Source: an uncultured Acidimicrobiia bacterium
GTDB lineage: Bacteria > Actinomycetota > Acidimicrobiia > Acidimicrobiales > CAIXPF01
DNA length: 64,000 nucleotides
Reading direction: 5' to 3'
Assembly: GCA_903921205.1 (NCBI GenBank)
Contig: CAIXPF010000180.1
Coordinates: 1 to 64,000 of the forward strand
Notes under the pieces: model-generated
What the model saw: the letters and a program-made list of their open reading frames with translations, nothing else
What the model was told of the DNA's origin: nothing
Databases searched by the model: none
In this document: positions 1 to 45,670 of the stretch, piece after piece
Position numbering within the stretch: position 1 is the stretch's first letter
Layout of the letters: every line of letters starts with the position of its first letter
Made by a program: the position numbers and the translations under genes

Positions 1-343
<343 letters not shown>

Positions 344-35254: not shown

Positions 35255-35815
35255 TCAGCTCAGCGATCGGGAACGCGCCCGCTCGATCAGCCCCAGCACC
35301 TCGCCGGTGGCCCACTCGACATCATCGTTGACAACGACGACCGCCCCGAGCTCCTGGGAGCGGCGGGCCTCGGCCTCGGCCTTGTCCAGCCTGGCGCGGA
35401 TGATGGGCTCGGGGTCACCCCGGTGACGCAGGCGAGCTTCCTGAGCGGCCGGCGACGGTGCCTCGATGAAGATCAGCAACGCCTCGGGGAAGCGGCTGAC
35501 CACCTGGGCAGCACCCTGCACGTCGATCTCGAGCACCAGGTCGAGACCCTCGGGCGGGTCCGGCACGGGGGTTCCGTAGAGGTTGCCGAGGAACTCTGCG
35601 TACTCGAGGAAGCCACCCTCGGCGATGCGCTGCTCGAACGTGTCCCGGGCAACGAAGACGTAGCTGTCGGCGGCCTCACCGGGACGGCGATCCCGGGTGG
35701 TCCACGAGCGGCTCAACCACAGCCGCCCGTCGAGCGGCAACAGCTTGGACACGATGGTTCCCTTACCCGCGCCACCGGGTCCGGAGATGACGACTATCAG
35801 CGTCGGCCCCCTCAG
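35255..35815 (-). CDS. gmk: Guanylate kinase (start proposed at CTG 35815)
   Basis: In-frame extension of the ORF-track call (which starts at GTG 35752) encodes the P-loop [42 protein letters not shown]. No ATG/GTG found before the P-loop. Confidence 0.93.
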
Positions 35816-36135
35816 GAGGCGGGGCTGAACTCGGCCAGCAGTGACTTGCGCTGCTGATCCCCGAGACCACGCACCCGGCGGGTCTCACTGATGCCGATCT
35901 CCTCCATGGTGCGGCGGGCCTTCACCTTGCCGACACCCGGCAACGACTCGAGCAGGGCGAGCACCTTGAGCTTGCCGACGACGTCGTCGGTCTCGGCCTT
36001 GACGAAAACATCGGCCAGCGTGACCGACCCCATCTTCAGGCGCTCCTTCAGCTCGGCACGTACGCGACGGGCCTCCGCGGCCTTTTCGAGCGCGGCAGCG
36101 CGCTGTTCTTCGGAGAGGGCGGGGGGATTCGGCAT
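35812..36135 (-). CDS. mihF: Actinobacterial integration host factor
   Basis: [30 protein letters not shown]...[44 protein letters not shown]. Confidence 0.93.
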
Positions 36136-36261
36136 GGCCTCGATCCTACCGGTTCGGCCCGGCCGCACCGGTGGATAGGTACCGTCCGAACTGGGGCGAT
36201 GCGACCCGACGATGCCCGCGTGGCCCATCAGCCCCCGGCCGCGGCGGGCCGAGCCGGCCGG

Positions 36262-37196
36262 TCAGCGGTGGGCCGCGCCGACCAGCTCACGCACCGAGGC
36301 CACGCCGTGGTCGCGGCACCACTGTGACAGGCCGGCAGCCACTCGGTGGGCGGCCCGAGGGTCGGCGAAGGACGCCGTACCGACTTGCACCGCCGACGCC
36401 CCGGCGAGCAGCAGCTCGACGGCGTCGACGGCCTCGGCCACACCACCCACCCCGACGATGGGCAGATCGGGCAGCGCCTGGTGCACGTCGAAACAGGCCC
36501 GCACCGCCACTGGGTGGACGGCCCGGCCGGACAGTCCCCCACGCTGGGCGCCGAGCACCGGCCGGCGGGTCTCGACGTCGATCGCCATGCCCACGACGGT
36601 ATTGATGAGGGTCACCGCCTCGGCGCCGCCGCGGTGAGCGGCGTCGGCGACCTCGACGATCCGATCGGTGTTGGGGCTCAGCTTCGCCCAGCGCGGTCGG
36701 TTGCACACTGCCGTTGCCGCAACCACGGCCTCGGTCATGTCGGGGTCGTGGGCGAAGATCCGGTTGCGGTCCTCGAGGTTGGGACACGAGACGTTCACCT
36801 CGACCGCCACCACCTCGGGGCCGAGATCGGCGAGCAGTTCGGCGGCACGGGCGAACTCCTCCACCGTACGGCCCCAGATGGACACGACCACGGCGGCACC
36901 GCTGTCCCGCAGCTCGGGCAGTTCCTCGTCGCGCCAGAACGAAACGCCCCGGCCCTGCAGGCCCACGCTGTTCAACATGCCACCGCCGGTCGGGTGAACC
37001 CGGGGCGCCGGGTTGCCGACCCAGGGCTCGGCGGAAAGGGACTTCACCACCAGCGCGCCGAGTTCCCGCAACGGGAAGAACGATCCGAGCTCGGCGCCAT
37101 GCCCTGCGGTACCCGACGCCGTCATCACCGGATGACGCAGGGTCAACGACCCGACCGCAGCGGGCAGGGCCGGCACCGACGCGGTGCCCCGGCGGC

Positions 37197-37200
<4 letters not shown>
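36262..37200 (-). CDS. pyrD: Dihydroorotate dehydrogenase
   Basis: [60 protein letters not shown]. Confidence 0.92.
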
Positions 37201-40521
<3,321 letters not shown>

Positions 40522-40535
<14 letters not shown>

Positions 40536-41664
40536 GGTTCTCCTTCCATTCGTCCATCAGGAGCGCGAACTCGGTGAAGAGGTACCGCGGGTCGTGGGGC
40601 CCGGGACCGGCTTCGGGGTGGTACTGCACGCTGAAGCACCAGCGATCTCGCCGCCGGAGCCCGCCGACGGTGCCGTCGTTGAGGTTGACGTGGGTGATCT
40701 CGACCCCTTCGGGGAGGGTGTCGGGGTCGATGGCGTAGTTGTGGTTGTGTGAGGCGATCTCGATGCCGCCGGTATCGGTCCGGCGAATCGGGTGGTTTCC
40801 GCCGTGGTGGCCGAAGGGCAGCTTGAACGTGGTTCCACCGAGGGCCTGGCCCAGCAACTGGTGGCCGAGGCAGATGCCGAAGATCGGCACCTTGCCCACC
40901 AGCGCGTCGACCGCGGCCACGGCGTAGGGCAGCGCCGCTGGATCACCGGGCCCGTTGGAGAGGAAGACACCGTCGGGTTGTCGGGCCAGTACCTCTGCCG
41001 CCGGCGTGGTCGCCGGCACGACCTCGACGTCGGCGATCTCCGCCAGTTGGTCGATGATGGAGGTCTTGATCCCGAAGTCGTAGGCCACCACCCGGCGACG
41101 GACGTCGCGGCCGGCCGGATCGCCCTCGCCGGCACGGCGGTAGGCCTCGGTGCAGGTGACCTCACGCACGAAGTCCTGCCCGTCGGTGCCCGCCGCAGCA
41201 CGGGCGGCTGCGAGCAGGTCCGGCACCGCTGCAGTGCCGAACGCGCCGGGCATGGCGCCACGATCGCGCAGCACCCGGGTGAGCCGGCGGGTGTCGATGC
41301 CGCTGATGGCCGGGATCCGGTGGGTCTCGAGAAAGTCGGCCAGGCTGAGCTCGGAGCGCCAGTTCGACGCCCGTCGGGCGAGGTCACGCACGATGATCCC
41401 CCGGCAGTAGGTCCGGGCGGCTTCCATGTCGGTGGCGTTCGTGCCGTAGTTACCGATGTGGGGATAGGTGAACGTGATGATCTGGCCGGCGTGGGAAGGG
41501 TCGGAGATCACCTCCTGGTATCCGGACAGCACGGTGTTGAACACCACCTCGCCCACGGCGATGCCGTCGGGCGGCGCCCAGCCCGCGGCCTCGCCCTCGA
41601 AGACGGTGCCGTCGGCGAGCACGAGGTGAGCCGCGACGGGTTGCGCAGTCGTTGATGGTTCCAT
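40522..41664 (-). CDS. carA: Carbamoyl-phosphate synthase small subunit
   Basis: [51 protein letters not shown]. Confidence 0.97.
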
Positions 41665-41676
41665 GATCGGTGCTCC

Positions 41677-43017
41677 TCAGCGCTGGGCGACGGCGTCGAT
41701 GACGACCGGCACGCCGCGCACGATGGTGTGACGGACCCGACCCCGCAGTGCACGACCGGCGAACGGTGTGGTGCGGCTGCGGCTCGCGCCGCGCAGGGGG
41801 TCGAGGGTCCAGGTTGCAGTGGGATCGATCACGGTGAGGTCGGCCACGGTGCCGCGCTCGACCAGCCCCGTGCTCGCAGGGTCGACCAGAGCGGCCGGCT
41901 TCCAGGACAGGGCACCGATCAGCTCGGCCAGACCGACCGGTACGGCGGCTCGGTCACCGCCCTCGCCCACGTCGACGAGGGTCAGCTCGGTCAACGCCAA
42001 CGCCACCAGCCACTCCAGCGACGAGGCACCGGCGGCGGCCTCCCCGAAGGGGACCTCCTTGTCCTCGATCGAGTGCGGGGTGTGATCGCTGACGAGGCAG
42101 TCGACCTCGCCCGCCGCCAACGTGGCCTGCAGAGCACGCCGATCGTCCTCGGGCCGCAGTGGCGGTCGGAACTTGGTGGCGGGGTCGAACTCGGCGCACG
42201 CTGCATCGGCGAGCAGCAGGTGGTGCAACGCCGCCTCGGCGCTGACCCGCAGCCCACGACGACGTGCGCCGGAGACCATGGCCCATGATGCAGCCGTGCT
42301 CAAGGTCCGGAAGTGCAGGTGGCCACCGGTGAGCCGGGCCAGGGCGAGGTCGCGCATGACGACGACCTCCTCCGCCTCCGACGGGATGCCCGGGATACCG
42401 AGCAACGAGGACCACACGCCCTCGTGCATCTCGCCGCCGGCGGCAAGCGACGGATCCTGGGCGAACTGCACGACGACCACCCCGAGGGCGGCGGCGTACT
42501 CGAGGGCTCGGCGCAGCAACCGGGCATCGGGAATGCCACGGCCGTCGTCGGCGAACAACCGCACGCCGAGCGATGCCAACTCGGCCAGGGGTGCCAGCCG
42601 CTCGCCCTTGGCCCCGACGGTGACGGTCGCTGCGGGCAGCACCCGGCAGGATGCGCCGGCACCGAACGCCAGGACCTCTTTCACCATCGCCGCCGAGTCG
42701 ACGACGGGATGGGTGTCCGCCCGGGCGACGATGGTGGTGAACCCACCCAGTGCCGCCGCTCGGGCCGCACTGTGCACGGTCTCGGTCTCCTCGTAACCCG
42801 GCTGGCCGACCCCGGCGTTGAGGTCGACGAGGCCCGGGGTGATGATGCATCCGCCGGCGTCGAGCACCGTGGCTGCACTGAGCCCCTCGCCGACGGCGAC
42901 GACGAGTCCGTCGCTGACCACCACGTCGGCCCGACGACGACCCGAGCGATCGAGCACCTCTGCCCCGCGGAGCACGAACTCGCCGGCCACCGCCGGCCGT
43001 TCCGCCAGTTCACTCAT
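41677..43017 (-). CDS. pyrC: Dihydroorotase
   Basis: [66 protein letters not shown]. Confidence 0.93.
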
Positions 43018-43963
43018 GACCGACACGCTCCGAGCCCTCGTCCGCCGCGGAGCCGTCGGCCCCGGCCAACAGCTTGAACAACACCGCCATGCGCACCGAC
43101 ACACCGTTGGCCACCTGGTCGAGCACCAGGCACCGCTCGAGGTCGGCGACCTCGGGGGCGATCTCGACCCCGCGGTTCATCGGGCCGGGATGCAGCACCA
43201 CGGCCCGCTCGGCGAGCCGGTCGGCCCGGTCGACGGTGAGACCGTAGCGAGCCGTATATTCCCGCAAGGTCGGGACCAGGGCCTCGTTCTGCCGTTCGAG
43301 CTGCATACGCAGCAGGTACACCACGTCCACCGTGCCGAGCACTGCGTCGAGATCCTCGCTCATCTGCACCGGCCAGCCCTCCAGGCTCGGCGGGAGCAGC
43401 GTGCGAGGGGCGACGAGCACCACCTCGGCCCCCAGCGCAGTGAACGCCCAGACGTTGGAACGCGCCACACGGGAGTGCTTGATGTCGCCCACGATGGCGA
43501 TGCGCAGTCCGTCGAGCGAACCGAACCGCTGCCGCAGCGTGAACGCGTCGAGCAGGGCCTGGGTCGGGTGCTCGTGCCAGCCGTCGCCGGCGTTGAGCAC
43601 CGAGCAATCCAACCACCGGGCCAGCTGCCACGGCGCACCCGAGCTGGCATGGCGGACCACCACCGCATCGATGCGCATGGCCTCCAGCGTCAGCGCCGTG
43701 TCACGCAGCGTCTCGCCCTTCTTCACCGATGACGAGCTCACCGAGAAGCTCAGCGTGTCCGCCGACAGGCGCTTGGCCGCCGTCTCGAAGCTGAGCCGGG
43801 TACGCGTGGAGTCCTCGAAGAACAGTGTGGCCACCGTCTTGCCCCGCAACGCGGGCACCTTCGGGATGGGCCGGGCGTTGACCTCGGCGAAGGAATCGGC
43901 GAGCACCAGCAGCTCTTCGAGCGACTCCCGGCTCATCCCCGCGATACCGAGCAGGTGCTTCAC
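43010..43963 (-). CDS. pyrB: Aspartate carbamoyltransferase catalytic subunit
   Basis: [55 protein letters not shown]. Confidence 0.97.
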
Positions 43964-44583
43964 GACTCCCCCGCTTCGGTGCGCACCGAGGCACTGGTGT
44001 CGCCGGTGGCGAATCGGCGCACGATCTCGACGCCGTCGAGGCCGACCTTGACGTCCTCGTCGCGGCGGGTCGGCAGGTTCTTGCCCACGAAGTCGGGACG
44101 GATCGGCAGCTCCCGATGGCCCCGATCGACCAGCACCGCCAACTGCACGGCACGGGGCCGGCCGTGGTCGTTGAGCGCGTCGAGCGCCGCCCGAACGGTC
44201 CGTCCGGTGAACAACACGTCATCGACGAGCACGACGACGCGGTCGGTCAGGTCGCCCGGGATGTCGGTCACCGCGTGGGGCAGGACCCGGCGAAGCGACA
44301 GGTCGTCCCGGTAGAACGACACGTCCAGCCGACCGACCGGCGGTGCGGCGGGCTCGAACTCGCTGAGGACCACGGCGAGCTGCTCGGCCAGCGGGACCCC
44401 GCCGGTTACCAGCCCGACCAGCACGACCCCGTCGAGGCCGTGGTTGCGCTCGGCGATCTCGTGCGCCATACGGCGCAACGCCCGGGCGACATCACCGGCC
44501 TCCATGACCCGGGTCCGTGCAGAAAAAACGCCCCCATCGGGGGGCGTGGACGTACGAGAAGATGGGTCTGGCGCGTCAGCCAT
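43960..44583 (-). CDS. pyrR: Bifunctional pyr operon regulator / uracil phosphoribosyltransferase (alternative start ATG 44505)
   Basis: [48 protein letters not shown]; first gene of the pyr cluster. Confidence 0.95.
44523..44547 (-). terminator. Intrinsic terminator at the pyrR 5' end (attenuator candidate)
   Basis: Minus strand ACGCCCCCC-GAT-GGGGGCGT immediately followed by TTTTTT. Confidence 0.8.
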
Positions 44584-44599
44584 GATGCTCCTGTCCGTT

Positions 44600-44617
44600 C
44601 GGGCCTCACGGGACCCG
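44600..44617 (-). promoter_or_regulatory. PyrR-binding-loop-like hairpin in the pyr leader
   Basis: Minus strand CGGGTCCCGTGAGGCCCG: CGGG/CCCG stem presenting a UCCxGnGAGG-like loop, 8 nt upstream of the AGGAG Shine-Dalgarno. Confidence 0.65.
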
Positions 44618-44687
44618 CTTCACGGTCAGGTGTGGACCTTAGCAGCACGGCACCGTAGGGCGGGGTCGCCCTGGCGGCGGGCTCGGC

Positions 44688-45110
44688 TCAGTGCGCCGAA
44701 GGATCTCGCCCGGGGCGCACCTCGGCGGAGATCGACGCCAGCACGCCGTTGACGAACCGACCCGAGTTGTCGGTCGAGAAGCGCTTGGCCAGTTCGACCG
44801 CCTCGGAGATGATCGCGGCGGTCGGCACATCGGTGCGCTCGGTGAGCTCGAACGCGGCCATCCGCAACACCGTCAGATCCAGCAGCGGCATGCGCTCGAG
44901 GCGCCAACCACGGGCGAACCGGCCGATCAAGGCATCAAGCTCGGGCCGCTTGGCCTCGACGCCACGTACCACCTCGACCGCGAACGGGTCGGCGGGAACG
45001 GGTAGCGCAGCGAGCACGTCCTCGATGGGCAGGTCCTTGGTCGCGGCTTCGTACAACAGCCCCAGCGCCCGCTCCCGGGCTGCACGACGTCCTCCGGCAG
45101 CGACGCTCAT
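44688..45110 (-). CDS. nusB: Transcription antitermination factor NusB
   Basis: RRAARERALGLLYEA, RMPLLDLTVLRMAAFELTERTDVPTAAIISEAVELAKRFSTDNSGRFVNGVLASI. Confidence 0.95.
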   Translation of the reverse strand: MSVAAGGRRAARERALGLLYEAATKDLPIEDVLAALPVPADPFAVEVVRGVEAKRPELDALIGRFARGWRLERMPLLDLTVLRMAAFELTERTDVPTAAIISEAVELAKRFSTDNSGRFVNGVLASISAEVRPGRDPSAH

Positions 45111-45670
45111 GCGCGGGTGAGGTACTCCCCGCTGCGGGTGTCCACCTTCACCCGGTCACCGGGGTTGACGAACAACGGGACCTGGATGACCAACCCGGTC
45201 TCCAGCGTGGCCGGCTTACGCGCGCCCGACACCCGGTCGCCCTGGATGCCCGGTTCGGTCTCGGCGATGTTCAGCTCGACCGCGGCGGGCAGTTCGACCC
45301 CGACGATCTCGTCCTCGAACATGACCAGGATCGCCGTCGAGCTCTCGACCACGTAGTTGGTCGCCTCGCCGAGAGCGTTGGGACCCACGTTCATCTGGTC
45401 GTAGCTGCTGTTGTCCATGAAGACGTAGTCCTCGCCGTCGCGGTAGAGGAACTGCATCTCGCGCTTGTTCAGCACCGCCCGGTCGAACCGTTCACCGGCT
45501 CGGAAGGTCCGGTCGACGACCTGACCGGTGCGGATGTTCTTCAACGTGGTGCGCACGAACGCGCCGCCCTTGCCGGGCTTGACGTGCTGGAACTCGACGA
45601 CGTTGTAGAGGCCCTCATCGAGGTTCAGGGTCATCCCGTTGCGCAGGTCGCTGGTGGAGATCATCGCCAT
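45107..45670 (-). CDS. efp: Elongation factor P
   Basis: ISTSDLRNGMTLNLDEGLYNVVEFQHVKPGKGGAFVRTTLKNIRTG; GDRVKVDTRSGEYLTRA. Confidence 0.97.
   Translation of the reverse strand: MAMISTSDLRNGMTLNLDEGLYNVVEFQHVKPGKGGAFVRTTLKNIRTGQVVDRTFRAGERFDRAVLNKREMQFLYRDGEDYVFMDNSSYDQMNVGPNALGEATNYVVESSTAILVMFEDEIVGVELPAAVELNIAETEPGIQGDRVSGARKPATLETGLVIQVPLFVNPGDRVKVDTRSGEYLTRA

What the first reader, a model, noticed from the sequence alone, without database searches (positions are those of the whole stretch)
44505..44641. pyr operon leader combines a PyrR-box-like hairpin, Shine-Dalgarno, and an intrinsic terminator that would lie inside the pyrR reading frame
Seen: on the minus strand, a possible -10 (TAAGGT, 44641-44636) is followed by CGGGTCCCGTGAGGCCCG (44617-44600), AGGAG (44592-44588) and ATG (44583). 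A GC stem with TTTTTT (44547-44523) then sits in frame, encoding ..[10 protein letters not shown].., before the conserved PyrR core near Met 44505. Known: B. subtilis PyrR binds a UCC-x-GnGAGG loop to control transcription attenuation; in Mycobacterium smegmatis PyrR represses translation by binding near the pyrR start. Inference: here both could be coupled. PyrR-UMP would block the SD, leaving the hairpin free of ribosomes so transcription terminates; translating ribosomes would prevent the hairpin. Alternatively pyrR starts at ATG 44505 and this is an ordinary leader attenuator.
Basis: partly seen in the sequence, partly recalled or inferred. Interest (0 to 1): 0.75.

Follow-up and report, generated by a model that had tools for sequence, protein, structure and literature searches.

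The report
Ribosome-gated terminator inside pyrR coding sequence
An actinobacterial order appears to switch off pyrimidine synthesis with a protein that blocks ribosome loading, which then lets a transcription stop signal hidden inside the first protein-coding gene fold; the design is kept across the order, has been copied in front of a second gene, and is a variant of known attenuation systems rather than a new principle.

Summary
On the minus strand a promoter -10 is followed by a PyrR-binding loop (UCCCGUGAGG in a stem), a Shine-Dalgarno sequence partly paired in that stem, ATG 44583, and an in-frame 8-bp GC hairpin plus six U (44547-44523). This is not chance. Acidimicrobiales relatives keep the whole set: 366 of 397 order genomes match the model, at least 150 full length.

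The hairpin is selected as RNA. Its Val codon is GTT in 75 of 79 (background 8%). Unrelated stems encoding different peptides occupy the same place in other clades. Stem changes are compensated. No antiterminator pairing is conserved. The first codons are translated, and codon 44505 is often not a start, so the terminator really lies inside pyrR.

In one family a second copy of the module sits in a 22-31-codon leader ORF whose stop overlaps the carA start (12 modules, 11 genomes).

Best model: PyrR-UMP blocks translation initiation, the uncovered hairpin forms, and transcription of pyrR-pyrBC-carAB-pyrD stops; a translating ribosome prevents this. Binding and termination are untested. An E. 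coli study found a terminator about 30 bp after a start codon little affected by translation, so an RNA polymerase pause is probably needed.

The parts
44636..44641 (-). -10 element TAAGGT of the pyr promoter
   Evidence: A TANNNT sits exactly 28 nt upstream of the loop's UCC in 74 of 92 relatives (10 more at 26); background 0.00115 per position. The same -28 spacing is kept in all 12 carA modules.
44590..44630 (-). PyrR-binding stem-loop: CCUG-CCGU-CGGG-UCCCGUGAGG-CCCG-ACGG-CAGG; the lower stem pairs the first AGG of the Shine-Dalgarno
   Evidence: Fold -19.8 kcal/mol with CCUG paired to CAGG; compensatory changes in both stems; UCCNGNGAGG invariant or nearly so.
44588..44592 (-). Shine-Dalgarno AGGAG, partly inside the loop's lower stem
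   Evidence: over 77 leaders the median SD pairing probability is 0.63.
43960..44583 (-). pyrR, 207 aa, start ATG 44583
   Evidence: NCBIfam NF003549 PyrR, 212 bits against cut-off 138; PDB PyrR relatives 1ufr, 1a3c and others.
44523..44547 (-). In-frame intrinsic-terminator hairpin and U-tract encoding T-P-P-D-G-G-V-F, 36 nt after the start codon
   Evidence: conserved position (24 nt from the start in 63 of 73 relatives).
43010..43963 (-). pyrB (aspartate carbamoyltransferase), downstream target
   Evidence: Pfam OTCace; overlaps the pyrR stop.
41677..43020 (-). pyrC (dihydroorotase), downstream target
   Evidence: Pfam Amidohydro_1 / DHOase at threshold.
40522..41664 (-). carA, downstream target
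   Evidence: Pfam CPSase_sm_chain.
37197..40535 (-). carB, downstream target
   Evidence: Pfam CPSase_L_D2.
36262..37281 (-). pyrD, downstream target
   Evidence: Pfam DHO_dh.

Best explanation
This is a PyrR-controlled attenuator in which the ribosome is the antiterminator. Transcription starts just upstream of the binding loop. When pyrimidines are plentiful, PyrR with UMP binds the UCCNGNGAGG loop and stabilises a stem that contains part of the SD, so no ribosome loads. The early pyrR mRNA is then ribosome-free, the GC hairpin at codons 13-19 folds, and RNA polymerase stops at the U-tract, silencing pyrR and the whole pyrBC-carAB-pyrD operon. When pyrimidines are short, PyrR leaves, a ribosome starts at ATG 44583, covers the hairpin within a few codons, and transcription runs through. 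Shown from sequence: the parts, their conservation, selection on the hairpin as RNA, translation of the early codons, absence of a conserved antiterminator. Inferred: PyrR binding, termination, ribosome suppression, and a polymerase pause (perhaps at the loop hairpin) that gives the ribosome time.
For: (1) Whole set in one order: covariance model R1 matches 366 of 397 genomes of the order, the best 150 listed all full length, about one site per genome; outside the order only weak matches (best E 5e-6). (2) RNA-level selection on the hairpin: in 81 loci Val is GTT 75/79 (background 7.7%), Gly GGG 74/81 (21%), Thr always ACG, 74/74 (24%), Phe TTT 35/81 (11%). (3) Compensation: loop and terminator helices together beat all 500 shuffles. 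(4) Different stems encoding different peptides at the same place. In the bog-type group (RQARxRGLTF) a C/T change in one arm is matched by a Thr/Ala change in the other. (5) No antiterminator: in 77 leaders the terminator forms with median probability 0.998 and its 5' arm pairs upstream above 0.5 in 1%. (6) Early codons are translated: third-position entropy 1.48 against 0.49 and 0.34. (7) Coupling survives rearrangement: small upstream ORFs whose stop overlaps the pyrR start (L006, L015, L025, L026, L033, L048, L073; my reading). (8) A detached copy: 12 modules before carA in 11 genomes, with -10, loop, SD, a 22-31-codon ORF containing the hairpin, and its stop overlapping the carA start by exactly NTGA. 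(9) Relatives without a terminator such as Ilumatobacteraceae and Microbacterium also lack the roughly 20-codon N-terminal extension that holds it.
Against: No experiment exists for any step. In E. coli a tR2 terminator about 30 bp after an AUG lost only about 10% of its efficiency through translation, because ribosomes load too slowly (PMC4824070); here the hairpin begins 24-36 nt after the start, so a pause is needed and none was identified. The binding loop folds without PyrR (-19.8 kcal/mol), so the ligand-free state may already be partly repressed. Intrinsic terminators are scarce in this window, so how well this RNA polymerase uses them is unknown. Several lineages have lost the U-tract or hairpin, so it is not essential. 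Genomes are mostly MAGs and not phylogenetically independent.
Confidence: 0.7

Rival explanations
1. Two separate controls share the leader. PyrR represses translation of pyrR only, while the terminator responds to something else, such as UTP-dependent polymerase pausing that sets ribosome-polymerase coupling (as at E. coli pyrBI), or general translation capacity.
For: E. coli pyrBI has a terminator in a translated leader ORF controlled by coupling (PMC5021804). Loop and terminator fold independently. The loop alone suffices in relatives without a terminator.
Against: Loop, SD, start and hairpin are kept together at nearly fixed spacing and were copied as one unit to carA. In that arrangement blocking the SD must also strip ribosomes from the hairpin.
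Confidence: 0.16
2. The hairpin is not a terminator. It protects mRNA, slows early translation elongation, or affects decay.
For: No termination data; canonical terminators are scarce in this window; some clades keep the peptide without the U-tract (L011, L016, L034).
Against: A U-tract follows on the 3' side only (6.1 T of 8 against 2.2 A of 8 on the other side), enforced by the rare GTT codon, and new stems in other clades keep a U-tract at the same place.
Confidence: 0.1
3. Ordinary leader attenuator: pyrR starts at ATG 44505 and the hairpin is untranslated.
For: ATG 44505 exists and aligns near the first strand of solved PyrR.
Against: That codon is a non-start Leu codon in 18 of 81 relatives; the upstream codons show coding-type variation; no SD precedes 44505 while AGGAG precedes 44583; no antiterminator.
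Confidence: 0.02
4. The hairpin is a by-product of a conserved peptide TPPxGGVF needed by PyrR.
For: The peptide is conserved in most of the order and survives in some clades where the U-tract is gone.
Against: Codon choice far beyond the peptide; other peptides with equally good hairpins; the same design in carA leader ORFs unrelated to PyrR; PyrR relatives without the extension.
Confidence: 0.02

Closest known systems
Bacillus subtilis PyrR attenuation (Rfam RF00515; Bonner 2001 and Turnbough and Switzer 2008, from memory)
   Same: PyrR family protein, UCCNGNGAGG loop, intrinsic terminator upstream of the biosynthetic genes.
   Different: There terminator and antiterminator are alternative RNA folds in untranslated leaders. 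Here no antiterminator is found and the terminator lies in coding sequence behind an SD.
Mycobacterium smegmatis PyrR translational repression (Fields and Switzer 2007, from memory; paper not held)
   Same: Single PyrR-binding loop whose stem covers the pyrR SD.
   Different: No in-frame terminator reported there as far as I recall. Here repression of initiation would be converted into transcription termination.
E. coli pyrBI (pyrL) attenuator (PMC5021804)
   Same: Terminator inside a translated ORF, suppressed by the advancing ribosome, in a pyrimidine operon.
   Different: There UTP-dependent pausing is the signal and the ORF is a leader peptide. Here a repressor protein gates ribosome loading and the ORF is pyrR itself, or a carA leader ORF in one family.
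M. tuberculosis Mbox with upstream ORF and Rho termination (PMC12810186)
   Same: Translation block on an actinobacterial leader leads to premature termination.
   Different: Riboswitch and Rho there; RNA-binding protein and an encoded intrinsic terminator here.

Membership tests
PyrR protein family | Family-level sequence match with PRPP loop (DDVLFTGRT) | tested here: met
   NF003549 212 bits against cut-off 138; PDB PyrR hits down to 4e-53.
PyrR-regulated pyr leader (B. subtilis type) | UCCNGNGAGG binding loop in a stem | tested here: met
   Exact match, covarying stems.
PyrR-regulated pyr leader (B. subtilis type) | Mutually exclusive antiterminator pairing | tested here: not met
   77 leaders: 5' arm pairs upstream above 0.5 in 1%.
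PyrR-regulated pyr leader (B. subtilis type) | Terminator in untranslated leader | tested here: not met
   Hairpin is in frame, downstream of SD and a translated start.
PyrR-regulated pyr leader (B. subtilis type) | Match to Rfam RF00515 | tested here: not met
   No RF00515 match at gathering score or with E up to 5.
Mycobacterial PyrR translational repression | Binding stem overlaps the SD | tested here: met
   CCUG pairs CAGG, which holds the first AGG of the SD.
Mycobacterial PyrR translational repression | UMP-dependent PyrR binding blocks translation | not testable with these tools
   Needs binding and reporter assays.
Ribosome-mediated attenuators (pyrBI type) | Intrinsic terminator inside a translated ORF | tested here: met
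   (sequence evidence only; termination itself not shown).
Ribosome-mediated attenuators (pyrBI type) | Signal sensed by elongating ribosome or UTP-dependent pausing | not tested
   No pause element was identified by eye; not analysed formally.

The most novel reading that the evidence does not exclude
A conserved natural translation-to-transcription converter: an RNA-binding repressor that blocks translation initiation of a structural gene whose own early codons encode the intrinsic terminator, with the ribosome as sole antiterminator, used as a movable module (pyrR coding sequence, and a dedicated carA leader ORF).
Probability: 0.6. Interest if true: 0.8.

Novelty: new variant of a known kind. 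Interest (0 to 1): 0.7.

Why it matters
It would join two known modes of PyrR control (attenuation and translational repression) in one mechanism and show how one may turn into the other. It offers a large natural series, with losses, swapped stems, leader-ORF forms and a transplanted copy, for asking how quickly ribosomes must load to beat a terminator just after a start codon, an open question given the E. coli data. It also shows that a coding sequence can be shaped codon by codon by a regulatory RNA, which gene callers and codon-based tests overlook.

Tried and rejected
Rfam search of the window at gathering score and of the region at E up to 5: no PyrR element. The folding numbers used wrong hairpin registers for some rows and are replaced; its -10 statistics stand. 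The strict hairpin scan misses the alternative stems, which one search recovers. Start at ATG 44505: rejected. Peptide-driven hairpin: rejected. A requirement for the Pro-Pro motif (EF-P link) was considered and set aside, since alternative stems and some carA leaders lack it. Papers: Bonner 2001 and Fields and Switzer 2007 are not held; the searches I ran showed no report of this arrangement in Acidimicrobiia, but the library omits most subscription papers.

Full report
WHAT IS THERE. Minus strand, 5' to 3': -10 TAAGGT (44641-44636), a stem-loop CCUGACCGUGAAGCGGGUCCCGUGAGGCCCGAACGGACAGG, the SD AGGAG (44592-44588), ATG 44583, and at codons 13-20 ACG CCC CCC GAT GGG GGC GTT TTT, an 8-bp hairpin with a 4-nt loop and six U. 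The ORF is pyrR, followed by overlapping or closely spaced pyrB, pyrC, carA, carB and pyrD.

IS IT MORE THAN CHANCE. In the 64-kb window it is the best hairpin plus T-tract on either strand. One hundred relatives from genome contigs and the genome search were read. Most Acidimicrobiales have the same order of parts. The pattern ACGCCYCC-N4-GGRGGCGTTTTY occurs in 11 of 198 class genomes, once in each, and only at pyrR in this 4.36-Mb genome. A covariance model of loop plus terminator matched 366 of 397 genomes of the order, the top 150 listed full length, and only weakly outside it. Some of the weaker matches within the order are loop-only.

SELECTION ON RNA, NOT ONLY ON PEPTIDE. In 81 loci encoding PPxGG[V/A]F, codon choice departs strongly from the same loci's background: GTT 75/79 Val against 7.7%; GGG 74/81 against 21%; ACG 74/74 Thr against 24%; TTT 35/81 against 11%. 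In A1 (33 sequences) every measure of pairing beat all 500 shuffles; the CG to UA changes in the terminator stem are synonymous and compensated. Other clades have different stems at the same place: GACGCGCCCCGAAGGGCGCGTT-TTC, CGGTGGCGCCTGGCGCCGCCG-TTTTT, ACGCGGCACCCNGGTGCCGCGT-TTG, and CGYCAGRCGC..GYCTGRCG-TTTT. In the last group a C/T difference in the 5' arm is matched by an Ala/Thr change in the 3' arm, so the peptide follows the RNA. On a PyrR tree the terminator needs 20 changes against 44 for shuffled labels: clustered in the order, with repeated losses and probably few gains (the tree has many weak branches).

THE HAIRPIN IS TRANSLATED. Hairpin base to start is 24 nt in 63 of 73 loci and 36 or 39 in the window's clade. 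Codons 2-8 vary mostly at third positions (entropy 1.48 against 0.49 and 0.34), and the codon of ATG 44505 is Leu (CTC, CTT, CTG or CTA) in 18 of 81. Relatives such as Ilumatobacteraceae and Microbacterium, which lack the terminator, also lack the N-terminal extension.

HOW IT IS GATED. The loop stem pairs the first AGG of the SD in the window; across 77 leaders SD pairing is moderate (median 0.63) and there is no conserved antiterminator. A TANNNT at -28 from the loop places the transcript start at the foot of the stem (start position inferred). What can stop the hairpin is therefore a ribosome, and what can stop the ribosome is PyrR on the loop. This is inference from anatomy. Rearranged leaders keep the logic: small ORFs after the SD whose stop overlaps the pyrR start (L006, L015, L025, L026, L033, L048), or the terminator inside such an ORF (L073, TGATG overlap) (read by eye). 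In family f3 a second module precedes carA in 11 genomes: -10 at -28, loop, SD, a 22-31-codon ORF with an in-frame GC hairpin, and TGA overlapping the carA start in all 12 modules. One genus of that family has weakened or lost the U-tract in pyrR but mostly keeps one in carA.

PROBLEMS. Li et al. (PMC4824070) put tR2 30 bp after an AUG in E. coli and found translation reduced termination by only about 10%. E. coli pyrBI solves this with coupling across its leader ORF (PMC5021804), helped by polymerase pausing (PMC4824070). A pause here, possibly at the binding-loop hairpin, is a needed and untested assumption. No transcript or binding data exist for this order in what I could search.

COMPARISON. 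It works like a cross between mycobacterial PyrR translational repression and pyrBI ribosome-mediated attenuation. It uses the B. subtilis PyrR recognition loop but fails the defining antiterminator and untranslated-leader features of the B. subtilis system. Hence: new variant of a known kind.

Noticed in passing
L196-L205, L207, L208 (family f3 genomes): Second copy of the promoter-loop-SD-terminator module in a short leader ORF overlapping the carA start; in G007 (L176) an extra gene separates pyrC from this carA unit.
   Followed up: yes
L194 (G088, family f7): carA with its own PyrR loop but no terminator; the same genome's pyrR (L206) also has the loop only, suggesting translational control of two units.
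   Followed up: partly
L006, L015, L025, L026, L033, L048: Short ORF inserted after the PyrR-gated SD, its stop overlapping the pyrR start, apparently arisen several times, some perhaps by duplication of the start region.
   Followed up: partly
window 45107-45670 and 44547-44523: efp (EF-P) lies two genes upstream of pyrR while the terminator encodes a Pro-Pro motif (PPD), a type known to stall ribosomes without EF-P; PP is absent in other clades, so possibly coincidence.
   Followed up: partly
window 35812-37281: pyrD is followed directly by an S13-like H2TH-domain gene (mIHF-like); no pyrF in this cluster, unlike many actinobacterial operons (from memory).
   Followed up: no
L084, L087, L095, L099: Distant PyrR relatives in other phyla seem to have ordinary terminators upstream of the start codon.
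   Followed up: no
window 1-340: 5' end of a 16S rRNA gene on the minus strand (Rfam RF00177), cut by the window edge.
   Followed up: no
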